A stretch of 64,000 bases of DNA from assembly GCA_946807835.1 (NCBI GenBank), contig OX327697.1, positions 6,959,001 through 7,023,000 of the forward strand, read 5' to 3'. The notes beneath the pieces are model-generated. The model was given only the letters and a program-made list of their open reading frames with translations. It did no database searches and was not told the DNA's origin. The stretch comes from Ailanthus altissimus. Taxonomy: Eukaryota; Streptophyta; Magnoliopsida; Sapindales; Simaroubaceae. Position numbers and translations under genes: made by a program. Of this stretch, positions 12,717 through 52,495 are shown piece by piece (the first letter of the stretch is position 1; the number at the start of each line of letters is the position of its first letter).

Positions 12717-13660
12717 TGGCTCATTTCATCATGTGCTAAGACCATCGATACCTCAAAACTAGTAAAGTTATTCTTTTCGGAGAGTAGTCGGTTGCATGAA
12801 TTACCAGTTATTATAGTATCTCACATAGATGTTAGGTTTGTGAGCTAATTTTGAAAGACATTTTATAACTTTTTGGTACCACACTAATGGTTAAATTGAA
12901 TTAAAGTTTGGGAGATTTGTTGCATTGCTTAGTAGGTGGTTAATAAACTTGAAGCCTGGGACCTTTTTCTCCCTATGGCCCAATTTGCCTATAATAACGT
13001 TGTTCATAGATCCATTGGTACAAGTCCCTTCATGATTATTAATGGCCTTTCTCCTTAACAGCCTATTGGTCTTGTACCTCTATTACTATATTTTCGTCCA
13101 TGTGATTTTGCTACTGATTTTGCTCATCACATGGACGAAAATATAGAATTTGAAGAAGTTAAAAAAAAATGCTCTAAGTAATAAAAATTATAAACTTTCT
13201 ACTGATGCAAATTGTCGGCACCTAGAATTTGAAGAGGGTGAATATATCATGGTTTGCCTCTATCCTGAACGATTTCCTAAACATTCAAATAACAAATTAG
13301 ATGCTCTCACCCGCAGTCTCTTTTTTGTCCTTAAAAGGCTCAAATCTAATGCTTATCTACTTGATTTGTTATTAGATTTGACTATTTGTCCAGTATTTAA
13401 TGTGGCAAATTTGTTTCCCTACCGAGGCATTTTGAAGCCTTCAGTGGTTTCTTCTGATATTTCTACAGGTTTACCAGCGCTACCCACACCTGGCCCATAT
13501 CTTTCTTGCACCCGTTGATGAGATATGTGTTATCTTGGATGATGAGTTCTTGACTTCCTCTGATGGGGTTTTGAGACGTTTCTTGATTCGTTGGTGGATC
13601 ATCCAAAGACGATACTTGGATTCTAAAAGAAGAGCTTCAATGTGTTGCTCCTGATTTAAT
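12717..13660 (+). pseudogene. Chromovirus integrase and chromodomain relic
   Basis: The integrase core begins at 'MAHFI' (12717) and runs, with stops, through an 'RSIGTS'-like region. An intact stretch at 13150-13518 covers the integrase C-terminal module (EFEEGEYIMVCLYPERFP, then FNVANLFPYRG). A chromodomain remnant follows at about 13510-13600 (LDDEFLTSSDGVLRRFL). The order and motifs are those of plant chromoviruses. A perfect inverted repeat at 13086-13146 sits inside this reading frame. Confidence 0.75.
13086..13146. repeat. Perfect 21-bp inverted repeat with 19-nt loop
   Basis: Arms at 13086-13106 and 13126-13146 are exact reverse complements (ctatattttcg...gtgat and atcac...cgaaaatatag). 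The loop is tttgctactgattttgctc. The hairpin lies within integrase-derived sequence. Confidence 0.95.
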
Positions 13661-14519: not shown

Positions 14520-17500
14520 CTACGCAATGGTTGTGATGGTTTTGTCAACGGAGTGCCAAAATAGGATAAATGAGTTGTTTGGGGGAGTAGTCACCATAAC
14601 ACTATCAAAATATTGTTGGACTGGCATATCAAAGTGAATACTTATCGATGAGAATTGCATTCAGTTAATAGAGACACTAACCAACTCAAGTTTGTAGTTA
14701 CATTTGCAATTGCTTGATATTTTGATTCACAGCTGAACCTAGAAACAACTGTGTGTTTCTTGAAAGACCGTGATATTAAATTATCTCCAAAGAAAATACA
14801 GTAGCCTTCTATAGATTTTCTATCAACTGTGTCACAACCTTAATCTACATCACTAAATGCTATCAAGATTAGTTGCTGATTTGTAGAAAATAATAGTAAG
14901 CCATGATCAACAATTCATTGAGATATCTTAAAAGTCTCTTGCATGCTTTCGAGTTTACATTTAAATATTTTTCTATGACCTAACTTAGTTTGTCACTGAA
15001 GAACCTATTCAAAACCTGGTAATTGTTAAATATTATATTGCACTTACTGTACTTCTATACAATTTCTGATAAAGAAATTCATCACCAAGTTTGTCATCAA
15101 AAATGTTTTCAAGCTTCTACCTTGTAACCATTGGTGTACCACAACCATTTGTTTGACTCATATTTGTCTTTTTCAACAAATCATGAATATACTTAGTTTG
15201 AGAAATTTTCATACCTATATTGTCTCTTGTGACTTTTATTCCAAGAAAATAATGTAAGAGTCCCAAATTTTTTAGTGTAAAATATGTATTCAGATTTTGT
15301 ATAACTTGATTTATCGTTGAGAAATCATTATCTGTCACCAAAATATCATTAATATAGACAAGTACATAAACTAAGTAATTATCTTTGTTTTGTGTGAACA
15401 AAGTAGAATTTAACATAGAATTTTGCAATCCAATCCTAAAAGGTGCTTTTTTTAATTTTTTAAACCAAGCACTATGAGCTTGTTTGAATCCATTCAAACT
15501 TTCTTCAGTTTAGAAACATGAAAAAGTTTGCTAGAATCTATGAAGCCTTTAGGTTGAGGCATATACCTATCTTCTTGTAGATAACCATTAAGAAAGAAAT
15601 TAATTATATCAATTTGCCTAACTTTCTAATTATTCATGACTGCCAAGGTGAGTACAACTCCCACCGTTGTTGTCTTAGCTATAGGACAAAAAGTTTTAAA
15701 GTAATTTATTCTAGCCACTTCATGAAAGCCTTTTGCTACCAAATAAAACTTATACCTTTTTATGGTACCATCAGAATTATATTTAATTCTAAATACCTAT
15801 TTATTTTTAATAGAGTTTTGTTGATCTAAAGAAGGAACCAAGTCCCAAGATCTTCACGAGTGCTTGAAATTTAGCTATCATAACTTGCTTTCAATTTTCA
15901 TCTTGCAAGGCTATCTCGGCATTAGTAGGAACATCAAGGAGACTAAAACAGTTGGATTTTTTGTGCCTAAGTAAGTTTTAGGCTTGAATATTCCTGCGTT
16001 TGCTTATGTAATTGTTGGATCGGTTGGTTATAGTCTAAGTAGAGGGCCAATATTATTGCTTATAGGCATTGGTGAAGTAGAAAGTTCTGGTGAATTATCA
16101 AAATATGTAGTTGGTAAACTTAGATCAGGTGGTGATAAATCTTGAACAGGTGTTGTTAATGGTAAGAGACTAGAATTTTAGGATACCTAATATTGGTGTA
16201 GAAGGTGTTGTAGAATCTGAAACTATTCTCTTAAGCATATATATATTGTTGCGGAATAAATAATATTTCTAGATACACTAGCAAGTTGGGGAAATAAGTT
16301 TTTAAACTTAGGTAAAACACTATAGGAAATGTTGGGCACAACTTTGGTCCAAAAATGGGATCATATTTAAAAGGCAGTTCTGACTCATGAAAAATAATAT
16401 AGGTAGCTATGTAAACCTTCTTGAATTAACTTAAACATTTATAACTTTAGTGAAACTGACTATATCCTATTAAAATAAACTTAGTACTTTTGAAGTAAAG
16501 CTTATTTTTATTTTAAGGTTGAAGAAAATGATAACAAGTGCATCCAAACACTTTAGGGAACGTACAATCTAGTTTGAATTTGAATAGTTCTTGAAATGGA
16601 GACATATTTGATAAGATTAGGGTTGGCATTCTAATGATGAAAAATGATGTTGTGTCTATGGCTTCCTAGTAATAATTCAGTGGCATGGTAGTATAAGAAA
16701 ATAGAGCCAAGGAAGTCTCTAAAAGATGCTTATTTTTCATTCAAGTTTTCCATTTTAATGATAAATGTATGGACAGGGATGTCAGAAGAAGATTCCTTGT
16801 TTAAGAAATGAATGTAGAGGTCCAAGTATTTTATATGCATTTGATTTTGTATTTCAAACTATTTTTCAACAAAGATTTTAAATTGAGTAAAGATTGAAGT
16901 TGTTTCAAATTTTACTGTCATAGAATATACCCAAGTGTACCTAGTGTAATCATCTAAAAAGCTTAATTTTATTGAATTGAGAAATCTCTTCATAGTCATT
17001 CAATAGTAGCTTCATTACATGTAAACTAGGATCTCCTAATTTAAGATGAAGTAACTCAAACTTACTCAAAGACTTTTGTTTTTATCTAATCTTAACATTA
17101 ACTCTGACTATAGGATAGAAGAGACTTCTTTATTAACTTTAGCTGAAAGAGATATTGGTTTGGAACTGTTGTGCACCTTTAGAAGAAACATCCTTTTCTT
17201 GAATGTTACACCTCAAAAAGTCAATTCTTAATTGATCCTTTCCGCAACACCATTCCTTCCCTCTTCTTCTTGATCAGCCATTGATTTTTATGCATTTGAA
17301 CAAAAATACAATTATTAGAAACAACTTTGAAATACTTGTAAACCTTTTGGTAATTCTAGGAACAAATAGAGTTTGCTTTAATATTAAATATTGTGAGTTA
17401 TGTGATATAGGTAAGAAATATTCAATCCCAATTCGAGAGTCACTATGCTAGAGGAATTTTTCAAAGTGATTTTGTTGTTGGTGTCAACAACATTTGTTGA

Positions 17501-21800: not shown

Positions 21801-22546
21801 TGCCTCACCAAGCTAATGGCGAAAAAGGATGATGAGGAGGTGTTCCTCGAGGGAAGGAATCTGATCTCAATTTTAATATGAGTCGACTTGAGAAAGAGAA
21901 TAAAGAACATTGAGCTGAGGTTGAAGAATTTTGGAAAGGTTTCCAACTACGGCATGAGTTCGAACGATTGTCCAGAGAGTTGGAAGATGTGAGGAGGCTG
22001 AATGAGGAGACGTTGGTAGATCTTACTCAGATCCAATATGCCTTTGAGAGGAGTGAGGAGAAGGTTTCCTTCCTAGAGGGTGAGATAGAGAACTTCTTCC
22101 ATGGGAAGGTTATTTTGGAAGCGAGCTTGCTCATATTCATCGTGAGGAAGATTCTTGGGCAAAGATGAAGTCTCGCTTCTAAAGACAGTTGAAAATCCTG
22201 AAATCAGAGTTCATGCAAAAGTATCGTGAGTTAAAGGAAACAGCCAACCGAGTGACATCAGGTACTATTCTACTGAAGCACGTCGAGGACTAGGCTTCCT
22301 AGTTGGGAAGGGCGGTGGACAGCCTTCACTTAACGATAGAGGCATTGCAAAGGGACTATGCTTCGCTGCATTCAGAAAAGGTGGCTTTTGAGGTAGTGTG
22401 GCAGCGTAAACTGCCTATTGCCAAAGAAGTCTTTGATTGGGAAGTCAAGGTTATATTAGCTCGTGGCTTCTATCGTGGGATTCTGTTCTGTAGAGTTCCC
22501 ACTACCTATGGAATACTTTCGAAGGATGTTGATGCTTCTTGTGGCT
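18890..22546 (+). pseudogene. Antisense coiled-coil ORF (aORF) of the Tat element, 5' part
   Basis: On the strand opposite gag/pol, broken frames give a protein-like region. MARVESIQILHKGEDLDF starts at 19753, a low-complexity middle spans 20100-21500, and 21750-22546 is rich in Glu, Lys, Leu and Arg with a clear coiled-coil character (SRELEDVRRLNEETL at 21971; DSLHLTIEALQRDYASL at 22315). Antisense ORFs of this kind are reported in Tat-lineage elements and some carry the Pfam family called putative gypsy type transposon. That match is from memory and untested. The frame is cut by the Athila insertion at 22546 and resumes at 34956. Confidence 0.6.
20251..20958. mobile_element. Copia solo LTR with perfect target-site duplication
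   Basis: The LTR spans 20256-20953, starts TGTTGGTGGGATTCACATCA and ends CAAACA. It is flanked by AGAAG at 20251-20255 and 20954-20958. The 3' part contains the 'gaactacggtcccgtgattt' and 'gtgattgattgtgattt' words typical of plant copia LTRs. No internal region remains, so it arose by LTR-LTR recombination. It interrupts the antisense coiled-coil ORF. Confidence 0.9.
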
Positions 22547-24101
22547 TGATGAACACATGAAAATGCATGTTGTTAAGAGATTCAATCACCATTTAATGTC
22601 ACTAATTTTAGTGTTTTCTGTATTTTTAGCTTGAAATAAAGTGTTCTCCTTAAATTGTGATTAATGAATGTTATTTGGACAGGTTTAGGTAAACTGGACA
22701 TAACTCTCAATGTAGAAATCGAAATGAAGAAATTCTTGAACCTGGTGCAACATGACTCAATCTTACACAAATTTGAAGAATAGTGGAAAAGCCAAATCCA
22801 ACATGTTATGGGCCAAAAATTGAGATACAACAGAATCGGACTACAACTCTTACCCAGCTTGACCCAATTCACGTATTTGGACCGTATCTCACAAAATACG
22901 TACTCAATTGGTATAATTCTTGAAGCTGTAAATTTCTGACTTTACTATCAACAACTCGTATGTTTATGGTAAAGTCCAAATCAGCCGTTATCATGGACCA
23001 AATCGCATTGCAAATGGGTAAAATGGTTGTTGGCCGAATTCTGATGTATCTTTGGAATTTTGCTCATATCTCATTGAATACTCATCCAATTTGCATGAAA
23101 TCAGTGCCTATGGAAAGAAGAGTCAACATTATACAACTTTCATGTTGGCTGCAGAAGTTGAATTGATCATTTACATTATCAAAAATGTGCTGCAAGTGGA
23201 TACACGAGTTATTGACTTAAAATTATTGAAGATTGATGTCATCCATGACATATGTCCATTCATTGCCTATATAAGGAGACCCTTAGGACGTTTTTAATAG
23301 ATAATTTCTCTCTTCTTTTATTCTCATTAACATGTATTGTAATTTAGGCTAGAGTTCCTAGCAAGGCTAAGAGATGAACTTTTATGTGTAGTAAATCTAC
23401 TTCCATGCTTTGATTCGGTGTCAAGAGCTGTAAATGTTGTAAGTTTGGTTTTGATTAAACTCTTATCTATTTTATTTTCTATAATCCAGAGGTTATAATT
23501 CTCATGTCTCATATATGTTCAGTCATGCTTTTCTTATGTGATTCATGTTGATTTATAATTGTTACTGGTTATATTGTTTTATATGTTAATCTTTTACTGC
23601 AGTATTATCAATTTGATATATTGTCGATCTTGGATAACATGTAAGGGCAATAAATGTTTGATATTCAAGTTAATCTTTTACTGCAATATTGTCAAAATGA
23701 TATATTGTCGATCTTAGATAACTTGTATAAATAACATGATGTGTGTTAATGCTTGCAAAGAGTTTAACTAAATCAAATACATGTGTTATCAAATGTGCTA
23801 TATATTACATACCTTCCGATTGATTGTTTGGGATGTGAAACTTTCAGTTGAGTTATAAATATCGAATCAAAGTATAGAGTAGATTTATAAAGCATAATTG
23901 TGATTCTCAAAGCCTTACTTAAATCATCATAAGACATTTTCCTCAATTCATAGACAATTCTATCTCATCCGTTTAAATCAATTAACCCTTTGCTACTGCT
24001 TTAATATTTTACTTCACTAACCTATTTTGCCAAGAGCTTCCTCGTGGGATCGACACCTCAATCTATACTGCGATAGCCGCGTTATATTTTGAGCGTAAAC
24101 A
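22547..24101 (+). repeat. 5' LTR of the Athila-type element
   Basis: It starts TGATGAACACATG and ends GAGCGTAAACA, with the lineage-typical 'gtgggatcgacacc' near the end (24044). It contains the element promoter; 'ctatataagg' at 23268 is a plausible TATA box. Confidence 0.95.
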
Positions 24102-24107
24102 AAAATT

Positions 24108-24125
24108 TGGCGCCGTTGCCGGGGA
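24108..24125 (+). other. Primer-binding site, tRNA-Asp
   Basis: TGGCGCCGTTGCCGGGGA is the exact complement expected of a plant tRNA-Asp 3' end and is the usual primer-binding site of Athila-type elements. It starts seven bases after the LTR. Confidence 0.95.
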
Positions 24126-24230
24126 GGCACACTAAGCGAAAGTTGGTTGCGATTATAAATACTAAAGTGGTAACTTTGTATATTTTCTTTTCTTTGCAAA
24201 ATCTTAGTTTTATTTCCTTTGTTATTATTC

Positions 24231-24791
24231 ATGGTTGGTTCTACCACCTAATTTATTTTATTTTCTTTAGTTAATTTGTTATATTTTATATTATCTTAAT
24301 GGCTGGTTTTACCGTCTAATTAGTTTATTTTCTTTTATTTATTTATCGCACTTTATTTTCTTTAGTTTATTTATTGCACTTTTTTTTAATGGCTGGTTTT
24401 ACCGCCTAACTTTGTTCACTTTCTTTTATTTATTTATTGTACTTTATTTCTTTAGTTAATTTGTTGTATTTTCTTTTTATTTTGTGGCTGGTTCTACCGC
24501 CTAACTTAGTTTATTTATTTTTTATTGTACTTTATTTATTTATTGCACTTTTTTTTATTGCACTTTTTTTTATTGTACTTTATTTTCATTTTCTTTTACG
24601 TATTTATTGCACTTTATTTACTTTAGTTAACATGTTGTATTTTCTTTTTATGGCCGGTTCTACCGCCTAACCTTTTATTTATTTACTTATTGTATTTTCT
24701 TTTTATTATTTATTTATTGTACTTTTTTCGTATTTTATAGTCTTTTGTTTAGTTATTGTATTTATATTTCATGGTTGGTCTTACCACCTAA
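24231..24791 (+). repeat. Leader repeats, each holding a six-codon micro-ORF
   Basis: Six related 21-nt units occur at 24231-24251, 24299-24319, 24389-24409, 24484-24504, 24650-24670 and 24771-24791. In order they encode MVGSTT, MAGFTV, MAGFTA, VAGSTA (start codon changed to GTG), MAGSTA and MVGLTT, each followed by TAA. They are separated by T-rich 'ttatttattgcactttat' spacers of variable length. All lie between the primer-binding site and the gag-pol start, so on genomic RNA they would be upstream ORFs. Confidence 0.85.
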
Positions 24792-24873
24792 CTTATTTCT
24801 ATTTCTTGTTGTGTTTATTTCACTTCTTAATTTTCCTTAAGCATTTCTTTCCTAAAAATAAAAATTAGGATGT

Positions 24874-27800
24874 ATGCATCGACCTAGAGACAAACGAGGA
24901 AGATTTGTGAGAGAACTAGAACTAGAACTAGAACCACTCCCACAATTTGTAAGTGAAGAGAATTCACCTTCTAATTCATCTTGTAATTCTAACACAATGA
25001 GCCAACACGAAGAAAACCCCGTTAGAACTCTCAAAGATTACTTGCATCCTACTCGCACAGCCACACCATCATGCATTATATTTCCACCTAACATACCACA
25101 TTCGGATTTTAAACCTGGAATGATACAACTTCTTCCCACTTTTCATGGTCTAGATAGTGAAAATCCTTATGTACATGTTAGGGAATTTGAAGAGGTAATT
25201 GCCACCTTCCATAGCCAACCTGAAGCCATAGACACTGTTAGGCTTAAATTTTTCCCTTTTTCTTTGAAAGACAAAGCAAAGAGTTGGCTATACTCTTTGA
25301 GGCCGAGGTCTATAGGAACTTGGGCAGAAATGACCCAAGCATTTTTCAATAAATACTTCCCACAACACAAAACTAATGGCCTGAAAAGACAAATTTCTTC
25401 ATTCTCCCAAAAAGACAGTGAAACCTTATATCAAGTATGGGAAAGGTTTAAAGAGTTGCTAAATCTGTGCCCTCACCATGGGTATGAAAATTGGCGCTTG
25501 GTTAGTTATTTCTATGAGGGACTCACAATTAGAGAGCGCCAATTTGTTGAGATGATGTGTAATGGGGAGTTTCTTCACAAAGATCCTGAGGAAGCTATAG
25601 AATTCCTTAATGACTTAGCCGAAAAAGCCCATACATGGACTGGACCTAGCATTGCTGAAAGCACAAATAGGTCACGACCCAATGGAGTTTTCCATCTTAG
25701 GGAAGAGGATAACCTCAAAGCCCAATTAGAGGTCTTAACTAGGGAGTTAGAGGCCTTGAAATCCAAAGATAGAAGGGTCACCCACACGGTTGCTAGAGTT
25801 GAGTCACACGATGTCTGTTTTGTCTGTGGAGGAGCGGAACACTTAGCTCAGGATTGCCCCACGTATAGTGAGATGAGAGGGATATATGAGGAACAATGTA
25901 ATGCCCTAGGGATGTACAAGAAGCCTTATTCACCCTACTCTGAAACATATAATCCTAGCTGGAGAAACCACCCAAATTTCAGTTGGAAATCTGACCAACA
26001 AGCCAACAACCAATGGAAACAAGAACAACAAGCACCCAAGTCTTATGTTGCACCTCAATATAATGCACGACCAACTAGAAATTCTTTAGATGATACATTA
26101 CAAGCATTTATGGAGGCACAAAGTAAGACTAATCAAAAATTTGAAACAATTCTTGCACAGGTGGTGGACGAAAACAAAGAAATCAAGAGTCAAATCACAA
26201 AATTGACCAGTGCCTTAACTGTACAAGAGCGAGGTAAGTTTCCATCTCAACCTCAATCCAATCCAAAAGGACAATTCATGGCACAAGCTTCTACTTTTGA
26301 TGTTCAAAATCTCAAAGAAGTCAATGCCATTACTACTCGAAGTGGTAAGATTGTAAGTGAGCCTAATCCTGAAATTAACACATCTACGAGTAGTAAAGAT
26401 GCCCCCCTTGAAAAAGAGGCCACAATGGAAAAAGAGCCCAAAAGTAAGTTTTCAATCCCAGTGCCTTTTCCTCAAGCTCTTCGACCAGTTGGGAAAAATT
26501 CAAAAATTCAAGGTGAGATTTTGGAACATTTGAAACAAGTTAAAATTAATCTTCCCTTGTTACATTTGATTAAGCAGGTTCCAACTTATGCCAAAGTCAT
26601 CAAGGATTTATGCACTATCAAAAGAAAACACCATGTGAAGAAAACTGCATTTTTGGCAGAACAGGTAAGTGCAGTGATTGAACAAAAGACACCACCCAAG
26701 TATAAAGACCCAGGATGTCCCACAATCTCCTGCCAAATTGGGACACATGAGTTTGGTCAAGCTTTATTGGACTTAGGAGCAAGTGTAAATTTAATGCCTT
26801 ATTCTATTTACTTGCAGTTGGGACTTGGTGAGATTAAACCAACATCTGTAGTCCTACAATTAGCTGACCGATCAATCAAGAAACCACGGGGAATAGTAGA
26901 AGATGTTTTGTTGCAAATTGACAAATTTTACTATCCTGTTGATTTTCTTGTTTTAGATACTCATTCTGTTGTTAACATGGAGTCAAAAATCCCTCTTATT
27001 TTGGAGAGACATTTTCTAGCCACTGCTAACGCTCTTATTAATTGCAGAAATGGTCTAATGAAATTATCTTTTGGGAATATGACTCTTGAGGTGAACATTT
27101 TCAACATTGGCAAACAACCACGAGAAGAAGACGAGTGCTATCATTCATATATGATAGACACACTTGTAGCGGAGGAAGCTTATAAAAATCATGGCTATGA
27201 TTCTTCGAAAAACCTTCTCAATTTTGATTTTGAAGAATTGTATTATCCTGATGTAACAACTGATGTGTTTAGTATTTTTGACTCACAGGATAAACGGACT
27301 CGATTTTGGCAGCCACACTTTGAAGAGTTGCCACAAGAGAGGGAGAGACCGAAACCATCAAACCTCGAGACACCACAAGTTGAGCTTTCTCCACTGCCCA
27401 AAGGTTTGAAACACGCATTCTTGGGACCAGGTGATACCTTTCCTATCATCATTTCTTCTGAACTTAGTGCTGAACAAGAGAAAAAATTGATAAAATTGTT
27501 AAAAGAACATAAGTCTGCATTAGGTTGGACCATAGCTGATATTAAAGGTATTTCTCCATTGATATGCTCCCATAGAATTCATTTAGAGGAAGGTTCCCAA
27601 CCTCGTAGAGACCCACAAAGAAGACTTAACCCAACAATGAAAGAAGTAGTGAAGAAAGAGGTCTTGAAACTATTAGATGCGGGTATAATCTACCCAATTT
27701 CTGATAGTCAATGGGTAAGTCCAACTCAAGTAGTTCCTAAGAAATCTGGGGTTACTGTTGTTGAAAATGAGAATGGGATACCTTTTCCAACTAGGGTAGT

Positions 27801-29316
27801 AAGTGGTTGGAGAATGTGTATTGATTATAGAAAGTTAAACACAGCCACTAGGAAATACTATTTTCCATTGCCTTTTATCGACCAAATTTTAGAACGTGTA
27901 GCTGGACATCCTTTTTATTGCTTTCTTGATGGGTATTCAGGGTATTACCAGATTGAGATAGCTATAGAAGATCAAGAAAAAACTACTTTTACATGCCCTT
28001 TTGGTACTTATGCTTTTCGTAGAATGCCATTTGGATTATGTAATGCACCAGCTACTTTCCAGCGTTGCATGTTGAGTATTTTCTCTGATATGGTTGAAAA
28101 ATGCATGGAAGTTTTTATGGATGATTTGACTATTTTTGGTAATTCTTTTGATTTATGCCTACTTAACTTGAAATCTGTTTTGAGTAGGTGTGAAGAAAAA
28201 GGACTTGTGCTAAATTGGGAGAAATGTCATTTCATGGTATCTTCAGAAATCGTTTTAGGGCACATTGTATCTGAAAGAGGGATAGAGGTTGACAAGGCAA
28301 AAATTGAATTAATCTCTAAATTACCTACACCTAAAACGGTAAAAGATGTCCGATCCTTTCTTGGACACGCTGGCTTTTACAGAAGGTTTATACAAAATTT
28401 TTCTGCCATATCTAGACCATTGTGTAACCTTTTGCTAAAAGATGCAGAATTTACACCGACACAAGAGTGTGAGGAGGCATTCCGAACACTCATTGCCAAA
28501 CTCACCACCGCTCCTATCATGCAATCACCAGATTGGAACCTCCCATTTGAAATTATGTGTGATGCAAGTAATTATGTTGTAGGAGCAGTTCTTGGGCAAC
28601 GGAGGGAGGGAAAACCCTTTGTTGTTTATTATGCTAGTAGGACTTTGAATGATGCTCAAATAAATTACACTACTACTGAAAAAGAACTATTAGCTGTTGT
28701 TTTTGCCTTAGATAATTTTTGTTCTTATTTGATTGGTTCACCTATTGTTATTTTTACTGACCACGCAGCCCTTAAGTACCTTCTTTCTAAGAAGGATGCT
28801 AAAGCCCGTTTAATTAGGTGGATTCTTCTTTTGCAGGAATTTGATATAACCATCAAAGATAAGAAAGGCGTTGAAAATGTTGTTGCTGATCATCTATCCC
28901 GCCTTGAGTTCACTGACTCTACTGATTTGCCACCCATTCGAGACGATTTTCCAGATGAACATCTTTTTGCTATAAGCCAAATACTTTGGTATGTACATAT
29001 CGTAAATTATTTGGTTTGTGGTGAACTTCCATCTGACTGGAGTGCACAAGATAAGCGTAAGTTCTTGGTTGAGGTACGTAACTTTTATTGGGATGATCCA
29101 TATCTTTTCAAATACTGTCCTGACCAAATCATGAGACGTTGCATTCCTGAAAGTGAAGTTTCTAGTGTCTTAAATTTTTGCCATAGTGCTGGTTGCGGTG
29201 GCCAATTTTCTATGAAGAAGACAGCTGTGAAAATTTTACAGTGTGGTCTTTATTGGCCCACTTTGTTCAAAGACACTAATAATTTTGTCGTTCCTGTGAA
29301 AGATGTCAAAAGTTAG
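24874..29316 (+). CDS. Athila-type gag-pol polyprotein, frameshifted in integrase
   Basis: This 1480-codon open frame encodes the structural and replication proteins of the element. Visible in order: gag capsid domain (about residues 100-250), a CX2CX4HX4C zinc knuckle ([14 protein letters not shown], 315-328), aspartic protease with [10 protein letters not shown] near 633, reverse transcriptase with CIDYRKLNT near 984 and FMDD near 1081, RNase H beginning at MCDAS near 1228, and the start of the integrase zinc domain (from about 1405). Just after the first zinc ligands, near 29285, a one-base loss in a T run shifts the frame, and the ORF ends at 29316 on unrelated residues. The rest of integrase continues in another frame to 30284. 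The start is the first ATG in this frame after the leader. Gag, protease and RT look intact. Confidence 0.93.
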
Positions 29317-30284
29317 GTGCTTTATCTCGAAGAAATATGATGCCTCTTAACCCTATTCTTGTTATTGAGATATTTGACTGTTGGGGTATTGATTTTATGG
29401 GTCCATTTCCTTCATCTTTTGGCTATCTTTACATCCTTTTAGCTGTTGACTATGTATCAAAATAGGTGGAGGCTGTAGCTTGTCGTACTAATGATAATAC
29501 AACTGTGGTAAAATTCTTAAAAGAAAATGTGTTATCTAGGTACGGTACGCCACGTGTCATCATTAGTAACCAAGGAACACATTTTTGTAATCGTTCTTTT
29601 GAAGCTTTGATGCGCAGGTATGGTGTTCTTCACAAAGTTTCCACTGCATACCATCCACAGACAAATGGACAAGCCGAGCTAGCAAATAGAGAGGTTAAAC
29701 AGATTTTGGAAAAGACAGTTAACCCGAATCGCAAAGATTGGTCCCTACGCCTTTCTGATGCATTATGGGCATATCGTACTGCATACAAAACCATCTTAGG
29801 AATGTCCCCATACCTGCTTGTTTATGGGAAAGCTTGTCATTTACCTGTTGAGCTAGAACATAAAGCTTATTGGGCTGTCAAAGCCTTTAACTTTGATTTG
29901 AATGTTGCAGGTCTCCAGAGAAAGTTACAATTGTCAGAAATAGAAGAGCTACAAAATGACGCATATGACAACTCCAAAATTTACAAAGCTAAAATGAAAG
30001 TAGCTCATGATAAACAGATCTCAAGGAAACACTTTGAGCTAAATCAACGGGTCTATCTTTATGATTCTCGATTGCATTTACACCCTGGAAAGTTGAGATC
30101 TCGATGGACTGGTCCATTTATGGTAAGACATGTTTTTCCTAATGGTGCTGTTAAAATAGAAGACCCCACTGATGGACGGACTTTCAAAGTGAATGGACAG
30201 CGGCTAAAAAGCTACGTGGAAAAGGTAAACGACTCTATGTACCTAGGCGAGATCCCTCTTGTGGATCATGTCTATCGTGATTGA
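29283..30284 (+). pseudogene. Integrase remainder, two lesions
   Basis: This is the continuation of gag-pol after the frameshift. It reads through the second pair of zinc-binding cysteines, a GIDFMGPF segment with the first catalytic aspartate, and a TAG stop at 29463-29465 where the family has tryptophan. It is then open from 29466 to the terminator after 30284. In that open part the second catalytic aspartate is replaced by asparagine (ISNQGTHF near 29562). The glutamate in [12 protein letters not shown] is present. The C-terminal part ([18 protein letters not shown]) is intact. The integrase of this copy should therefore be inactive even apart from the frameshift and stop. Confidence 0.9.
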
Positions 30285-30389
30285 TCAGGTTCAATCTATC
30301 TGTACCATATTTTATATTTTGTCTATATTTTATCTTTTGACTTTCTATTTTTGCTTTTATTTTCCTGCACATTTTATTTTACTTTATTT

Positions 30390-30412
30390 TCTTCTTTTTA
30401 TTTTTTCTTCAG
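30390..30412 (+). promoter_or_regulatory. Candidate 3' splice site before the cargo ORFs
   Basis: A long pyrimidine run (cttctttttattttttcttcag) ends in AG at 30411-30412, about 120 bases before the ATG at 30533. Spliced subgenomic RNA is how env-like ORFs of plant retroelements are thought to be expressed. The site is inferred from sequence only. Confidence 0.5.
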
Positions 30413-30532
30413 TGTGATTTTATTTCCCGGTCAAGTGGCGGATACGGTACTCCGTGACTATTAAAGTCGGTTTCTCAGTTCCCTAAAAACTGTCCCTCAA
30501 ACTGTGCATTCATCTCTTTTCTTTCTTTCAAA

Positions 30533-31080
30533 ATGGATCGCATTCTTGCCAACCTTAAAAAACGTTTTCCTTCATTTCCTCAAAATGCTCTACTTAAGAT
30601 TTACAAAGCACGGTGTGAAAGACTAAGGCTATTGATGTTGGGTAATATCCCTGTGGACCTTCGTTGGTTAATTGAAGCCAAGGTTCGGTTGTCTGGTGAG
30701 TTTGAAAATGATTTTGTTTCTCATATGCCTGGTCTTGGAAGAAGCTCTTATGCCAAAGGCGACGAGCAAAAAGGTTACAAGTCTGTCATAAATGTGCTCG
30801 ATGGAATTGTAATCGGAGTTGTCGTTCTTTAGGATTCGTATCTAGAAATCGAGAAGACAAAATTCAGTTCATTAAGGATGGACTGAGTAAGGAGTCTTTG
30901 GATGATATCCTATTGACTCTTGAGACGCATCCCTGTGGGCTCGTGCAACGTGAACTTCTCGATTTATGGAACAAATTCAAAAATGAACATCAACGGTATA
31001 GTCTCGGGAATCTGACTCTAAAAGACCCTGTTTGCCAATTTATAAGAAAATTGGATGGGAAGCCTATCCCCGACCCATAG
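30533..31080 (+). pseudogene. Basic cysteine-rich ORF resembling viral nucleic-acid-binding proteins
   Basis: Two abutting open stretches (30533-30832, frame 2; frame 1 ending at 31080) appear to be one gene of about 180 codons broken by a one-base change near 30758. The first part has a helical, Arg/Leu-rich N-terminus and GRSSYAK. In the second frame this is followed by an arginine/lysine cluster, then cysteines spaced C-X2-C-X4-C-X3-C (CHKCARWNCNRSC) and an acidic/leucine-rich tail ending PIPDP. The order 'G-S-YA, basic cluster, CX2C' recalls the Viral_NABP family of carlavirus-type cysteine-rich proteins, which bind nucleic acid and can suppress silencing. That is a recollection, not a search result. 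It occupies the env position, directly after pol and before the LOG-like gene. It could instead be an unrelated zinc-finger protein. Confidence 0.5.
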
Positions 31081-31335
31081 AGGGCGTTTAAGCCGTTACT
31101 GGACGTAAAACCAGAGGAAGATGTGAGCCACAATCACAACTACTTGTAAATACATGTGTTTTAATTTCAAACTTTATTTTATAAATAGTAGGGCTACTCA
31201 TGTAGATGTCTTAAATTCAAATCTTTTTGTTCAATAATGCATGCGGGTCATTATGTTTAAATTTTTGTGTTTTATTTTTAACTCTCTTTTGACAAACTGT
31301 CGGGTTACCATAATCATTGTTATCATTTGGCACTC

Positions 31336-31343
31336 TATAAATA
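31336..31343 (+). promoter_or_regulatory. TATA box 53 bases before the LOG-like ATG
   Basis: TATAAATA in 'cactctataaatacagcacc' lies at a spacing that would give a leader of about 25-30 nt before the ATG at 31396. It suggests an own promoter for the cargo gene, or a chance match in AT-rich DNA. Confidence 0.45.
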
Positions 31344-31395
31344 CAGCACCTCAGTTTCTTCATTTTTATATATTGAGATAAAGGTGAGAGTAGAT

Positions 31396-32043
31396 ATGGA
31401 GGAAACCCAAGTTCGACAATTTCGAAATATATGTGTATTTTGTGGATCTAGTCCTGGGGAGAGTAAAGTATTCGTAGAAGCAGCAAACAATCTAGGAAAA
31501 ATATTAGCTGTAAGAAAAATTCATTTGATTTATGGAGGAGGTAGCCTTGGGCTAATGGGGTGTGTGTCAACAGCTGCACATTTAGGAGGAAATCAAGTTT
31601 TAGGTATTATTCCTACAGCTTTGGCCGTGGGAAACCTGACCGGGAAAACAATAGGGGAAGAATTACAAGTCTCATCCATGCATGAACGTATAGCCAGAAT
31701 GCTTTGCAATGCAGACGCTTTTATTGCTTTACCAGGTGGTTTTGGTACCTTGGAAGAAATTTTTCAAATTGTCTCTTGGGCCCAACTGAATATCCACCGA
31801 AAACCCATAGGTTTGTTGAATGTTAATAACTATTTTGATTGCTTACTTTGTTTTCTTGATCAAGCTGTGGAATAGAATTTTATTTCACATTCGGCGCGAC
31901 AGATCCTGGTTTCTGCTACTGAGGCGGATGAATTGATTAACAAATTACAGGCAGTTACCTACGAACCTGACCCAGCAATAACTCGGATCGATTGGTCAGT
32001 GGGCCTTAACAAGCGAAAATTGGATCTGACACTCCGTTTGTAA
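31396..32043 (+). pseudogene. LONELY GUY (LOG)-like cytokinin riboside monophosphate phosphoribohydrolase, intronless, one internal stop
   Basis: LOG enzymes release active cytokinin bases from riboside 5'-monophosphates. The frame reads FRNICVFCGSSPGESKVF at residues 9-26, IYGGGSLGLMG (45-55), MHERIARM (95-102), the family signature PGGFGTLEE (113-121), then SWAQLNIHRKPIGLLNV. The residue after the MHER arginine is Ile; many LOGs have Lys there. A TAG at 31873-31875 stops it after about 159 codons. The same frame continues with good C-terminal LOG sequence (SARQILVSATEADELINKLQ) to TAA at 32041-32043, so the original was about 215 residues, normal for LOG. Host LOG genes are interrupted by introns and this copy has none, which suggests capture of a spliced transcript. 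The ATG at 31396 is preferred over 31327 because LOG homology starts just after it. Confidence 0.88.
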
Positions 32044-32195
32044 ATTTTTCTTTTTATTTATCAGTACCATCATTTTAGTTTATATTTGCTTAAGTGTCTC
32101 TCAGGTTTGTTTCTTTCAAATAACTGGCGTTTCAGGTAATGTCTCCTATACTTTATCTATTTCTATTTAAACATTGAGGACAATGTTTCATCTGG

Positions 32196-32208
32196 TTTGG
32201 GGGGAGGA
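32196..32208 (+). other. Internal purine tract
   Basis: The words 'gaggacaatgtttcatctgg' and TTTGGGGGGAGGA recur downstream of pol in many Athila-type elements. It may serve as a second plus-strand primer. The tract adjoining the 3' LTR is 'ggttgggggctg' at 33384-33395. Confidence 0.55.
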
Positions 32209-32264
32209 TAGTAGACATACGTTGCATTTTGCACCAAAAAAAAAAAATTTGTGGTCCGACATTT

Positions 32265-32380
32265 GATTAAAATGGCAGAGTAAAGAGTTCATTCTTGAAC
32301 TCTTGAGACGCATTCTAGGTCAAATTAGAATGGCAGAGTAAAGAGTTTTAGTACTAACTTTTGAAATGCATTTTAACTAA
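32265..32380 (+). repeat. Two tandem copies of a ~58-bp unit in the Athila 3' region
   Basis: Both copies share 'atggcagagtaaagagtt'. The remaining 32381-33395 is non-coding, with poly-A runs at 32827-32842, and joins the 3' LTR. Confidence 0.7.
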
Positions 32381-33395
32381 CTTTTTGTTATTTTGTTTTA
32401 TATTTCATGCATTGTCATTTACTGCTTGTAGTCTTGGTAATTCTTGTATAAAGAAATTTACTTTTCTGCCTAAGTATGATTTCAGAATTGTTTAGGTTGA
32501 GTCACTGTTTCTATCTAGGTTACTAAATAATGACTTCCAAAATATTTTTGAGCACAATGCTAAGCCTTGTGGTAAGATGGATGATTCAATTTATATAGCC
32601 AAGAGAATTTCCATGTTTAAGTATATATTTTTCTAATCTCACATATCTTTTGTGAGTAAGTGGAAAGGATGAGAAAACAGCTTATGAACCTTCATTGATC
32701 CTTTGAATTGGTTAATTTTTGTTTAGAATGATATTATTTGAATTAAGGGATAAGTTGGTTACATTTGTGCATAATATAATTTGGTGAGAAACCTTTATAA
32801 TGCTTCCTTGTATTCTTCAAAAATACAAAAAAAAAAAAAAAACACACAAAAGTACCAAAAACAAGAAAAAAAAAAGAAGCAATTCAGTTTAATAAAGTCT
32901 TCATTCAATTTTAGAAGACAAATACCTTGTAAAACAGTTTTCTCACCAAGTTATAATTGTATTATTCTCACAAGCCAATTAAAGTTCTAAAGTTGGCGTA
33001 TGATATGAATAATTGATTTTTAAACAAATAATTTTCCTATTTTTGGATCAATGTTAGTTTATATGTCTGTCCTTAAAATTGACTTTTTCTTGAGTGCTTA
33101 ACTGTTTTCCAACTCCATAAGAGAAGTCCTAACCTTTTAAACAGTCATACACCTGTGAGGATATGGAGTTAAGGCTTTTACTTGGAGAAATTCTCAAGGC
33201 TATATCTATTGTGGTTTGTGGTTAGATGGTTATGGCTTAGTTCACACACACACAAATTACGGAAGTTGTAATTGAAAAAACCATGATAGCAACAGTGATC
33301 TCGAACTAACGTTTTGATTGAAATGCTTAGATAGTTTTGCATATTCTATTTACGCTTGAATTGCTAGAGACTAGCAATAAGTTGGTTGGGGGCTG

Positions 33396-34950
33396 TGATG
33401 AACACATGAAAATGCATGTTGTTAAGAGATTCAATCACCATTTAATGTCACTAATTTTAGTGTTTTCTGTATTTTTAGCTTGAAATAAAGTGTTCTCCTT
33501 AAATTGTGATTAATGAATGTTATTTGGACAGGTTTAGGTAAACTGGACATAACTCTCAATGTAGAAATTGAAATGAAGAAATTCTTGAACCTGGTGCAAC
33601 ATGACTCAATCTTACACAAATTTGAAGAATAGTGGAAAAGCCAAATCTAACATGTTATGGGCCAAAAATTGAGATACAACAGAATCGGACTACAACTCTT
33701 ACCCAGCTTGACCCAATTCACGTATTTGGACCGTATCTCACAAAATACGTACTCAATTGGTATAATTATTGAAGCTATAAATTGCTGACTTTACTATCAA
33801 CAACTCGTATGTTTATGGTAAAGTCCAAATCAGCCGTTATCATGGACCAAATCGCATTGCAAATGGGTAAAATGGTTGTTGGCCGAATTCTGATGTATCT
33901 TTGGAATTTTGCTCATATCTCATTGGATACTCATCCAATTTGCATGAAATCAGTGCCTATGGAAAGAAGAGTCAAAATTATACAACTTTCATGTCGGCTG
34001 CAGAAGTTGAATTGATCATTTACATTATCAAAAATGTGCTGCAAGTGGATACACGAGTTATTGGCTTAAAATTATTGAAGATTGATGTCATCCATGACAT
34101 ATGTCCATTCATTGCCTATATAAGGAGATCCTTAGGACGTTTTTAATAGATAATTTCTCTCTTATTTTATTCTCATTAACATGTATTGTAATTTAGGCTA
34201 GAGTTCCTAGCAAGGCTAAGAGATGAACTTTTATGTGTAGTAAATCTACTTCCATGCTTTGATTCGGTGTCAAGAGCTATAAATGTTGTAAGTTTGGTTT
34301 TGATTAAACTCTTATCTATTTTATTTTCTATAATCCAGAGGTTATAATTCTCATGTCTCATATATGTTCAGTCATGCTTTTCTTATGTGATTCATGCTAA
34401 TTTATAATTGTTACTGGTTACATTGTTTTATATGTTAATCTTTTACTGCAGTATTGTCAATTTGATATATTGTCGATCTTGGATAATATGTAAGGGCAAT
34501 AAATGTTTGATATTCAAGTTAATCTTTTACTGCAATATTGTCAAAATGATATATTGTCGATCTTAGATAACTTGTATAAATAACATGATGTGTGTTAATG
34601 CTTGCAAAGAGTTTAACTAAATCAAATACATGTGTTATCAAATGTGCTATATATTACATACCTTCCGATTGATTGTTTGGGATGTGAAACTTTCAGTTGA
34701 GTTATAAATATCGAATCAAAGTATAGAGTAGATTTATAAAGCATAATTGTGATTCTCAAAGCCTTGCTTAAATCATCATAAGACATTTTTCTCAATTCAT
34801 AGACAATTCTATCTCATCCGTTTAAATCAATTAACCCTTTGCTACTGCTTTAATATTTTACTTCACTAACCTATTTTGCCAAGAGCTTCCTCGTGGGATC
34901 GACACCTCAATCTATACTGCAATAGCCGCATTATATTTTGAGCGTAAACA
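33396..34950 (+). repeat. 3' LTR of the Athila-type element
   Basis: It is the same length as the 5' LTR (1555 bp) with about 21 single-base differences and no indels that I could find. It ends GAGCGTAAACA before the TGGCT duplication. Confidence 0.95.
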
Positions 34951-34955
34951 TGGCT

Positions 34956-50387: not shown

Positions 50388-51997
50388 TACTAAAGATTTG
50401 AATACTTACTACTCATTGCTTCATCATAAGAATTAAGTTCTTGTTCATACATATTTTGAGCAGATATAAGAGCATAAGCAATCAAATCTAGAATGAGGCT
50501 TAATCTGTCTTCTTTCTCTATCTCTAGCTAACTGATATGTATCTAAAGTGGACTCATTTAACCTATGTATATGACCCTGTTCCCCTTCATTGAGTGAATG
50601 ATTTATATCACCACCAATTAGATTTTCAGTGTCAGCACTCTGAGGGGATGGGGTTTCCACCTCAAAATGAGTAATCTCTTCTTTAAGGGGTGTAAAATTA
50701 TGCTGACCAGTATTATTTTTCTTGAATTTCCATTAATAGATTTTAAACAAGGCATTTCAGCTTCATTAAAGACAACATCTCTACTAGTTATTATCTTTAC
50801 ACTGGATTGTCCCTAAACCAGAGTCTATAGCCTTTAACCTCTTCAAGATATCCCAAAAATACACATTTATTATATCTAGGTTCAAAATTATCTTCTGTTT
50901 TATATGCATATGTTGCATACCCAAATATTCTTAAATGAAAGTAACTTGGTGGTTTATCTAACCATAACTCCTTAGTTGTCTTAAAATCTATTGCACTAAA
51001 AGGTGATCTGTTTTATAAAGTAACATGCAATGTTAAGAGCTTCTCCTCAATAACTTTTATTTATACTAGAACCAATCAATATGTATCTTGTTTTATTTAA
51101 TAAAGTTCTATTCATTCTTTTGATATTGTCATTTTTTTGGGGTGTATACTTAACAATTCTATGCATTAAGACTCTATTTTCTTTACAGAAGTTATTAAAT
51201 TCTTCATTACAAAATTCCATACCATTATTTGTTCTAAGTGCCTTTAAATTCTTTCCAGTTTTTTTTTCAACTAATTGTTTCCATTACTTAAATTTTGTAA
51301 AAGTATCACTTTTATTCTTAACTAAATAGACCCATAATTTTCTAGAATAATCATATATTATAGACAAGAAATATCTATTACCCTCATGAATTAATGTATT
51401 TGTAGGTCCCCAAAGATCAGCATGAGCACATTATAAAATAGGTTTTGATCTGTAAGAATTGATTTTAAAACTTAGTCTTTGTTGTTTATCTAAAACACAT
51501 TGTTCACAAAATTTAATTTTAGTAATTGTGTCAACAAGCCCTATTTACTATTTCATAAAGACCTAGGCTATTGATATGACTAAGTCTTTTATGCCACATA
51601 TATGTTCTATCTAGATCCTGGGTTACAGTAGCAATATTAGGTTCAAATATTTTTCTAACCTATAATATGTACAAGCCATTATGTTTTTGACCCTTTATTA
51701 CAATTAATGATCCATGAGAAATTTTTAACAGTCCATTCTCAAGTTTGCATGTATATCCACCTTCATCCAAGACCCATAAAAAGATTAAATTCCTTTTTAA
51801 ATCTGGAATGTACCTAACATTCTCTAAGGTCGTGATATTCTCACCAAACATTTTAATGATTATAGTTCCTATATCCTTAACTTTATAGGGTTGATTATTG
51901 CCCATTAAAACCTTTCCTCCATCATAGAAAAATATAAAAATTGAATTTTCAAAGCTTTTCAGAAACCCTAAAAACCCAATAGCTCTAATACCACTAT
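50388..51997 (-). pseudogene. Copia C protease-integrase relic lacking gag
   Basis: The minus-strand frame at 51884-51660 reads GKVLMGNNQPYKVKDIGTI and VRYIPDLKRNLI, the protease tail and gag-pre-integrase segment of copia. Then come HKRLSHI-type zinc sequence near 51600, integrase fragments to about 50900, and the linker 50660-50390 (TYQLARDRERRQIKPHSRF). Only about 110 bases separate the primer-binding site from this protease segment, so gag and the protease active site are deleted. Confidence 0.8.
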
Positions 51998-52495
51998 TGT
52001 AAATACAACTCAAAGACTTAATAATCTTACCAAGAATCAAACAATACACAAAGCTGAAACCAATCACACATCGAAACCAAAGTTTATAGTGGTTTAATTA
52101 CACAACGTGACCTACATCCATTTGAGCTCAACAAAAAGCTGCACTATTATGATGAAGTATTACGGTCCTAAGAGTTTACAAACTCTTATTAGCATCTATT
52201 GGACTCGATCTATATAAGAAATTCACAAGCTTTACAATCAATTTACCCCAAGAACAGTAACCCCAGACCAGCGAGAGAGAGAACCGGAAGACTCGAGAAA
52301 CTCTCTAACGAGATTACAGCCACACACCTTTACACATAAGAAAAACACAAATATATAGTAAACCAAAATGACGCCGTATAAGCCTAGGGTTACAACTCTT
52401 ATATTCACAAAGTCTAAAATGCCCTCATGTACCTAAATGACTCATAAGCCCCTTTTATAAAGTGTGCATTTACTTTGGAAACCACATTTTCTACA

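What the first reader, a model, noticed from the sequence alone, without database searches (positions are those of the whole stretch)
31396..32043. A cytokinin-activating LOG gene carried inside an LTR retrotransposon
Seen: an intronless ORF with the LOG signature PGGFGTLEE and full N- and C-terminal LOG homology lies between pol and the 3' LTR of a complete Athila-type element with matching LTRs and a TGGCT duplication. Known: LOG enzymes make active cytokinins, and plant LOG genes have introns. Inference: a spliced LOG transcript was captured and mobilised. A retroelement that raises cytokinin where it is expressed could favour dividing or meristem cells, giving it more chances of germline transmission.
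Basis: partly seen in the sequence, partly recalled or inferred. Interest (0 to 1): 0.88.

Follow-up and report, generated by a model that had tools for sequence, protein, structure and literature searches.

The report
Retrotransposons carrying a modified LOG gene
A very abundant plant jumping gene carries a long-kept, altered copy of a plant-hormone-activating gene next to a gene resembling a plant-virus protein, and the alterations suggest it may no longer simply make hormone.

Summary
The LOG gene is real and is true cargo. It lies between pol and the 3' LTR of an Athila-type element (LTRs 22547-24101 and 33396-34950, 21 of 1555 sites different, TGGCT duplication). In this copy it is broken by an in-frame stop at 31873, and pol is frameshifted. 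All 150 scored places of 5748 candidates in this 939-Mb genome hold the gene; two further repeat families (one Athila-type, one of unknown type) carry it too. Between families dN/dS is 0.14-0.36; after insertion it decays near-neutrally. LOG cargo in LTR elements is already in print (Citrus, Populus). I found no report of: (1) a second cargo gene between pol and LOG, intact in native copies, matching carlavirus-type nucleic-acid-binding proteins (Pfam Viral_NABP 5e-8); (2) LOG travelling with a TATA motif; (3) catalytic Arg/Glu kept but the pocket Lys (Ile/Met instead) and its partner Glu (Gln) lost; (4) a basic, EAR-type tail (LxLxL or DLNxxP), absent from AtLOG3. So 'raises cytokinin' is doubtful; a re-purposed LOG-fold protein, perhaps a nuclear corepressor recruiter, fits better. 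Donor and host LOG genes could not be tested: the genome search did not complete.

The parts
22542..22546 (.). 5' copy of the target site duplication TGGCT
22547..24101 (+). 5' LTR
   Evidence: 1555 bp, 21 mismatches and no gap against the 3' LTR
24108..24125 (+). primer-binding site TGGCGCCGTTGCCGGGGA (called Athila-type from recall; tRNA identity not tested)
24874..29316 (+). gag-pol ORF: gag, reverse transcriptase, RNase H, start of integrase
   Evidence: Retrotrans_gag, RVT_1, RT_RNaseH
29466..30284 (+). rest of integrase in another frame (pol is broken in this copy)
   Evidence: rve 2.3e-7, 31.4 bits, just under the Pfam cut-off 32.6
30533..30832 (+). NABP-like gene, first piece (broken by a frame change in this copy)
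   Evidence: no Pfam hit alone; intact 182-aa native copies elsewhere
30712..31080 (+). NABP-like gene, second piece, carrying the basic/Cys stretch
   Evidence: Viral_NABP 1.2e-4 (22.5 bits, cut-off 23)
30990..31140 (+). island nearly identical between one copy each of families 1 and 2 (0.92-1.0 per 50-nt step), across the end of the NABP-like gene and about 60 nt beyond its stop; unexplained
   Evidence: no Rfam family, fold z -0.67
31333..31345 (+). TATA-type motif CTCTATAAATACA, 60 nt before the LOG ATG; exact in 5 of 6 copies checked from three families
31396..32043 (+). LOG gene, broken here by an in-frame TAG at 31873-31875
32011..32040 (+). C-terminal tail KRKLDLTLRL: basic stretch plus EAR-type LxLxL
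   Evidence: exactly this tail in 67 of 73 copies
33379..33395 (+). polypurine tract region
33396..34950 (+). 3' LTR
34951..34955 (.). 3' copy of the target site duplication TGGCT

Best explanation
The gene is an old resident of Athila-type retroelements, not a fresh retrocopy. A LOG-coding stretch was taken up once (inferred), gained or kept its own TATA promoter (motif shown, promoter activity inferred), and is now found in three repeat families, two of them Athila-type (shown). Selection kept the protein while elements multiplied (shown between families). The protein keeps the LOG core and the catalytic Arg98/Glu121 but has replaced the substrate-pocket pair Lys99/Glu124 and has a basic, EAR-type C-terminal tail (shown). 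Most likely it is a re-purposed LOG-fold protein that enters the nucleus, binds a nucleotide with altered specificity, and recruits TOPLESS-type corepressors, changing host hormone or defence expression in the element's favour (inferred). The neighbouring NABP-like gene, of a family whose viral members bind nucleic acid and can suppress silencing (recalled), would be the second half of the same host-manipulating cargo (inferred).
For: Recurrence: 150 of 150 scored places (of 5748 candidates) match over the whole 159-aa query at 96-100%; in 30 of 30 loci read LOG has the same downstream flank, and in 29 of 30 the same upstream one (L013 differs); 49 of the 52 loci picked by the NABP-like protein have LOG, 43 of them near full. 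Families 2 and 3 with LOG; a family-2 copy has the same pol, NABP-like, LOG, polypurine tract, LTR order. Selection: LOG dN/dS 0.14-0.36 between families, NABP-like 0.22-0.23; LOG variants seen in one copy look near neutral (59 N, 25 S, 10 stops) while those in two or more are depleted in N (13 N, 12 S, P 0.012 against neutral; one more is a stop in two copies); NABP-like 19:7 single, 1:5 shared, P 0.005; 0 copies with an insertion and 3 with a deletion among 73 near-full LOG copies, against 36 and 68 among 69 for a 1150-bp 3' non-coding part. Pocket: I99 in 79 of 79, Q124 in 77 of 78, R98 in 77 of 79, E121 in 77 of 78 family-1 copies; I/M99 and Q124 in 8 of 8 copies of families 2 and 3 and on a plant-like contig, K and E in 5 of 5 reference LOGs. 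Tail: LTLRL, LTLRL (LTLHL in one copy), DLNLTP, LDLHL in the four lineages, each after a basic run, not in AtLOG3. TATA motif.
Against: No expression, localisation or binding data. The EAR-type tail is short, was noticed after the fact, and such motifs arise by chance (0.6-0.8% per protein in the last 8 residues). The K99 argument rests on a type II bacterial LOG, and the same paper calls the adenine-binding residues somewhat variable among LOGs; Ile/Met may be tolerated here. 30 of the 79 copies in the residue count were picked by LOG similarity. The contrast of shared and single-copy LOG variants is weak (Fisher P 0.10). The exact TATA 13-mer is missing in one of two family-2 copies checked, and the bare TATAAATA occurs 23 times in the window. 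Selection on the protein would equally fit an active enzyme.
Confidence: 0.42

Rival explanations
1. Active cytokinin-activating enzyme: the element LOG still releases free cytokinin in cells where the element is expressed and so favours dividing or meristem cells; the Lys99/Glu124 changes only tune specificity.
For: Catalytic Arg98/Glu121, Thr118, Glu120 and the PGGxGTxxE motif kept in nearly all copies; TIGR00730 above its cut-off (150.4 vs 96.35); purifying selection.
Against: Lys to Ala at the matching site abolished AMP hydrolysis in CgLOGII (PMC5379747, passages). The NCBI model for cytokinin phosphoribohydrolase scores 105 against a cut-off of 300 with the 159-aa ORF. It does not explain the conserved basic/EAR tail.
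Confidence: 0.3
2. Dominant negative: the element LOG pairs with host LOG subunits (LOGs of this type are dimers) and lowers cytokinin activation.
For: LOG core conserved while the Lys-Glu pair that in CgLOGII lies at the dimer interface and pocket is replaced.
Against: No dimer data; 46-50% identity to two Arabidopsis LOGs over the full length may be too far for mixed dimers; does not explain the tail.
Confidence: 0.14
3. Passive hitchhiker: LOG was captured by chance and copied along without benefit.
For: Single copies, the window's included, carry stops (7 of 150 within the query length; 9 of 43); 3 of 52 loci picked by the NABP-like protein show no LOG.
Against: dN/dS 0.14-0.36 over divergences up to dS 1.6; 42 of 49 family-invariant residues kept against 40 of 96 others (P 4e-7); conserved TATA motif and tail.
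Confidence: 0.04
4. Cellular gene first: an intronless LOG paralogue with its own promoter existed in plants and was picked up more than once by different elements.
For: The module of families 2 and 3 begins at its TATA motif; the related LOG on a 4148-bp plant-like contig in a Mycobacterium assembly shows no recognised element gene within 1.36 kb up and 2.1 kb down, only two similarities of 42-45 nt to the elements; the LOG tree joins family 2 with 3, and family 1 with that contig.
Against: Host LOG genes could not be searched; the contig may simply hold an old, decayed element.
Confidence: 0.1

Closest known systems
YgdH/LOG-domain ORFs in Ty3/gypsy elements of Citrus sinensis, C. clementina and Populus trichocarpa (PMC9289625, section 12 read whole; it cites Steinbauerova et al. 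2011, Genetica, not held; I recall its abstract naming two Athila-like elements with similarity to LOGL4)
   Same: A LOG-family gene as extra cargo of plant Ty3/gypsy LTR elements.
   Different: That section does not describe the NABP-like gene, a TATA module, the lost pocket lysine, the EAR-type tail or selection (its supplementary chart was not seen). The genome here is 939 Mb, which as I recall fits neither Citrus nor Populus.
Carlavirus nucleic-acid-binding (Cys-rich) proteins, Pfam PF05515 and PF01623
   Same: Native 182-aa ORF passes both Pfam cut-offs in 3 of 3 family-1 copies and PF05515 in two family-2 copies.
   Different: Sits in a retroelement; family-2 scores for PF01623 are under the cut-off; nucleic-acid binding and silencing suppression not tested.
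Arabidopsis LOG3/LOG8 and bacterial type I LOGs
   Same: LOG domain, PGGxGTxxE, catalytic Arg and Glu.
   Different: No intron in the element gene, Lys99 to Ile/Met, Glu124 to Gln, basic/EAR-type tail (compared with AtLOG3 to its last residue; AtLOG8 only to residue 206).
Pathogen effectors that recruit TOPLESS through EAR motifs, e.g. Ustilago Jsi1 (PMC8126959) and HaRxL21 (PMC7446885); titles and abstract starts seen in a search listing only
   Same: Short EAR-type motif in a protein of a parasite (by recall for HaRxL21 and Jsi1).
   Different: Here the motif ends a LOG-type protein in a retroelement; interaction untested.
AlkB-type demethylase captured by orchid Ty3/gypsy elements (PMC9289625)
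   Same: Host-type enzyme domain fixed in a gypsy family, and a domain also reported in Betaflexiviridae as that paper states (passage).
   Different: Another enzyme; here a second cargo gene lies beside it.

Membership tests
Athila clade of Ty3/gypsy | Ty3/gypsy layout: gag, RT, RNase H, then integrase | tested here: met
   (rve just under cut-off in the broken window copy); family-2 integrase part in one open frame
Athila clade of Ty3/gypsy | No second, archaeal-type RNase H (which marks Tat, PMC6317226 passage) | tested here: inconclusive
   one search shows RNase H models only at one place; no dedicated test
Athila clade of Ty3/gypsy | Reverse transcriptase groups with Athila in a tree | not tested
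   no reference RTs fetched
Athila clade of Ty3/gypsy | ATHILA ORF-1 domain PF03078 (in 16% of Athila elements per PMC6317226 passage) | tested here: not met
   not among the Pfam hits; by that figure not a required feature
LOG cytokinin-nucleotide phosphoribohydrolase | LOG/lysine_decarbox domain with PGGxGTxxE | tested here: met
LOG cytokinin-nucleotide phosphoribohydrolase | Catalytic Arg and Glu | tested here: met
   R98 77 of 79, E121 77 of 78; also families 2, 3
LOG cytokinin-nucleotide phosphoribohydrolase | Pocket Lys needed for activity in CgLOGII | tested here: not met
   I99 in 79 of 79, I or M in 8 of 8 copies of families 2 and 3 and in L095
LOG cytokinin-nucleotide phosphoribohydrolase | NCBI equivalog model NF058542 above cut-off | tested here: not met
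   105 vs 300 bits with the 159-aa ORF
LOG cytokinin-nucleotide phosphoribohydrolase | Enzyme activity | not testable with these tools
   needs an assay
Viral_NABP / Carla_C4 nucleic-acid-binding proteins | Pfam gathering score | tested here: met
   Family 1, 3 of 3 native copies: PF05515 33.5, 28.9, 33.5 bits (cut-off 23), PF01623 28.5, 27.7, 28.5 (cut-off 20.9). Family 2: PF05515 31.0 and 27.6 (met), PF01623 17.9 and 19.1 (not met); the first piece of a third, broken copy had no hit and its second piece was not scanned. Controls: 6 shuffles and the reversed protein no such hit
Viral_NABP / Carla_C4 nucleic-acid-binding proteins | Nucleic-acid binding, silencing suppression | not testable with these tools
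   needs an assay
EAR-type repressors | LxLxL or DLNxxP motif (definition: PMC6479872 abstract in a search listing) | tested here: met
   and L095
EAR-type repressors | Binding to TOPLESS | not testable with these tools
   needs an assay

The most novel reading that the evidence does not exclude
A plant retroelement lineage evolved a two-gene, virus-like host-manipulation cassette: a carlavirus-type nucleic-acid-binding protein that blunts silencing, and a LOG that lost its normal substrate pocket and gained a corepressor-recruiting tail, made from its own internal promoter and exchanged between repeat families as a module.
Probability: 0.27. Interest if true: 0.9.

Novelty: new variant of a known kind. 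Interest (0 to 1): 0.74.

Why it matters
LOG cargo in Ty3/gypsy elements was noted in print as a domain hit. Here it can be shown to be kept by selection over a long time and in a form that argues against plain hormone activation, beside a plant-virus-type gene. That makes a testable case of a plant retroelement using host-manipulating proteins, and a natural experiment on LOG catalysis: a clade with many genomic copies that dropped a residue reported as essential in a bacterial LOG.

Tried and rejected
Incidental retrocopy: rejected by recurrence and dN/dS. Chance Pfam match for the NABP-like ORF: the window's broken piece alone was marginal (1.2e-4, below cut-off); native intact copies passed; 6 of 8 full-length shuffles plus the reversed sequence were scanned and none hit these families, though the reversed one reached 1.1e-3 with an unrelated family; 3 of 7 shuffles of the piece were also scanned without such a hit. 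Structure of the NABP-like protein: single-sequence model at pLDDT 39, discarded; no PDB relative of the window piece at E 1 or better. Conserved island as an RNA: no Rfam family, no unusual fold. LOG or the primer-binding site in viral contigs: none. Bacterial origin of LOG: less likely but not excluded. LOG of families 1 and 2 scores best with AtLOG3 (193 and 228 bits; PaLOG 160 and 179); in the unrooted tree of 9 sequences element, Arabidopsis and bacterial LOGs form three groups, and host plant LOGs are missing. Literature on a carlavirus-type gene in LTR elements: searches listed nothing on it by title; one search used the unhyphenated phrase and can miss the hyphenated one.

Not done because the tool did not complete: host LOG genes of this genome (donor, introns, tail), a survey of Athila elements by their primer-binding site, and an integrase survey.

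Full report
What is in the window. An Athila-type Ty3/gypsy element, complete in anatomy, lies at 22547-34950: two 1555-bp LTRs differing at 21 sites without gaps, a TGGCT duplication outside, a primer-binding site after the 5' LTR and a polypurine tract before the 3' LTR. At rates recalled for plants (7e-9 to 1.3e-8 per site per year) 21/1555 gives about 0.5-1 million years since insertion. 'Athila-type' rests on layout, integrase order and the primer-binding site; no RT tree was made. gag-pol runs from 24874 but integrase changes frame. The LOG gene starts at 31396, is stopped at 31873-31875, and the remaining codons stay in frame to 32043. This copy is therefore defective in pol, in LOG and in a third gene described below.

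The LOG gene is cargo. In the window's own assembly (939 Mb, 37 contigs, unnamed) the 159-aa query gave 5748 first-look candidates, of which 150 were scored; all 150 match from residue 1 to 159 at 96-100% identity and 7 of 150 hold a stop within that length. The unscored candidates are not a copy count. Thirty of these loci were read: LOG has the same downstream flank in all 30, and the same upstream flank in 29 (L013 differs); the 29 loci other than the window's align to it in pieces at 94.9-98.6%. Of 52 loci picked instead by the second cargo gene, 49 have LOG, 43 of them near full. One further copy had a different 3' flank, so it is another insertion; its 5' LTR was not where I looked.

A second cargo gene. 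The window's second piece alone gave Pfam Viral_NABP at 1.2e-4, just below cut-off, and its first piece nothing. Three native copies gave Viral_NABP 5.3e-8 to 1.4e-6 and Carla_C4 1.5e-6 to 2.8e-6, all above cut-off. In family 2, two copies pass for Viral_NABP but not for Carla_C4; of a third, broken copy only the first piece was scanned, without a hit. Six shuffles and the reversed protein did not hit these families. The ORF gave 4851 candidates in the genome, 150 scored, 98-100% identical. Carlavirus proteins of this kind are recalled as nucleic-acid-binding and, in some viruses, silencing suppressors.

Other families. A 64-aa piece of AtLOG3 gave 150 scored places of 4700 candidates, and eight chosen for variety were read. 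Three (family 2) have the NABP-like gene then LOG; around one of them an Athila-type integrase lies upstream and a polypurine tract with the same LTR start downstream. Five (family 3) have LOG behind a different ORF; of four pieces of that ORF from three places, the three scanned had no Pfam match. At one place family 3 forms a 6.55-kb tandem, and I saw no reverse transcriptase among the reading frames of the pieces; its nature is open. How the other 142 rows divide was not checked. None of the eight looked like an intron-bearing host gene.

Selection. NG86 between families: LOG 1-2 dN 0.23-0.24, dS 1.60-1.65 (ratio 0.14-0.15); 1-3 0.21-0.25; 2-3 0.29-0.36; NABP-like 1-2 dN 0.17, dS 0.75-0.77 (0.22-0.23). 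A dS of 1.6 is near saturation. One comparison inside family 2 gave a LOG ratio above 2 on very few changes. Within family 1, LOG was counted in copies picked by the NABP-like protein and the reverse, to avoid picking by the trait counted. LOG variants in a single copy: 59 N, 25 S, 10 stops, close to neutral; in two or more: 13 N, 12 S and one stop (P 0.012 against the neutral ratio, but Fisher P 0.10 against single-copy variants; for three or more copies 5:5, P 0.08). NABP-like: 19:7 single, 1:5 shared (P 0.005; Fisher 0.018). Counts from copies picked by the same protein are biased and not used. So the genes are kept while lineages replicate and decay after insertion; the between-family ratios carry this claim.

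The LOG protein is altered. Against four solved LOGs, 42 of 49 invariant positions are kept and 40 of 96 others match AtLOG3 (P 4e-7); lost are V45, E80, K99, L122, E124, G132, G145. In CgLOGII, Ala at the sites matching R98, K99, T118 and E121 abolished AMP hydrolysis, and the Lys matching K99 interacts with the Glu matching E124 at the dimer interface, both being placed at the prenyl-group site (PMC5379747, passages only; the numbering match by the PGGxGTxxE motif is mine). The same paper calls adenine-binding residues somewhat variable among LOGs. In family 1: Ile99 in 79 of 79, Gln124 in 77 of 78, with R98, T118, E120, E121 kept in 77 or 78 (30 of these copies were picked by LOG similarity). 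Families 2 and 3 share this (Ile or Met, Gln) in 8 of 8 copies read. So does a LOG on a 4148-bp contig filed in a Mycobacterium assembly, which looks like plant contamination: the stretch has 39% G+C, and the only other LOG-like match in that assembly is 36% identical. The tree puts these four together, joins family 1 with the contig and family 2 with family 3, and keeps AtLOG3 and AtLOG8 as a pair of their own. Uptake is therefore old, and a single uptake is the simplest reading.

Tail and promoter. All four lineages end in a basic run and an EAR-type motif: KRKLDLTLRL (67 of 73 family-1 copies; 4 KQK..., 1 ending LTLCL, 1 with a stop), KKRRIDLTLRL (one copy KKRKIDLTLHL), KKRKIDLNLTP, RKRKLDLDLHL; AtLOG3 ends MERIGYSSEE. 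The motif definitions LxLxL and DLNxxP are from the abstract of PMC6479872 in a search listing. The chance of such a motif in the last 8 residues is 0.6-0.8% per protein, but the motif was noticed after the fact. The 13-mer CTCTATAAATACA stands 60, 73 and 68 nt before ATG in families 1, 2, 3; it was exact in 5 of 6 copies checked, missing in L087 of family 2; the 13-mer occurs once in the 64-kb window, the bare TATAAATA 23 times. A 12-of-13 match stands 56 nt before ATG on the contig (sequence). Similarity between one copy of family 2 and one of family 3 starts at this motif.

Already in print. PMC9289625 (section 12 read) reports the LOG-family YgdH domain in LTR-element consensuses of two Citrus species and, without its filter, P. 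trichocarpa, in line with Steinbauerova et al. 2011 (not held). The combination with a carlavirus-type gene, the pocket change and the tail I did not find in the held library (judged by listing; no search paired LOG with an EAR motif); Citrus and Populus elements were not available to compare.

Verdict. Observation sound with two corrections (broken ORF, broken pol). Interpretation right on cargo, unproven on the spliced-transcript route, doubtful on cytokinin. Best mechanism: re-purposed LOG-fold protein with a corepressor-type tail, at 0.42.

Noticed in passing
window 30990-31140: Stretch of about 150 nt nearly identical between one copy each of families 1 and 2 (0.92-1.0 per 50-nt step) where nearby coding mostly runs 0.6-0.9 and nearby non-coding about 0.4; spans the end of the NABP-like gene and about 60 nt beyond its stop. 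Functional RNA/DNA signal or recent recombination; no Rfam match, ordinary folding.
   Followed up: partly
window 25378-25484 (-): Rfam snoR71 (62.7 bits, cut-off 40) lies antisense inside the gag gene of this repeat family; the snoRNA family may include retroelement sequence.
   Followed up: no
L091, L088, L092 (G000 C5 about 4488431-4495180): Family-3 LOG carrier is a 6.55-kb head-to-tail unit with an unknown ORF and no reverse transcriptase seen in the pieces; a similar spacing (6.6 kb) is seen on C24.
   Followed up: partly
L095, L098, L099 (NZ_LZIL01000012.1): A 4148-bp contig in a Mycobacterium assembly encodes an element-type LOG with a TATA motif and EAR-type tail; probably plant contamination.
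   Followed up: partly
window 24257-24710: Tandem repeats of 95- and 170-bp units in the leader between the 5' LTR and gag.
   Followed up: no
window 13147-13518, 15117-15509, 51660-52097: Fragments of other retroelements: Tf2-1-like SH3 domain, copia-type reverse transcriptase, Pol_BBD.
   Followed up: no
LOG versus NABP-like gene, families 1 and 2: dS between families 1 and 2 is 1.6 for LOG but 0.75 for the NABP-like gene next to it, hinting that LOG was exchanged separately.
   Followed up: partly
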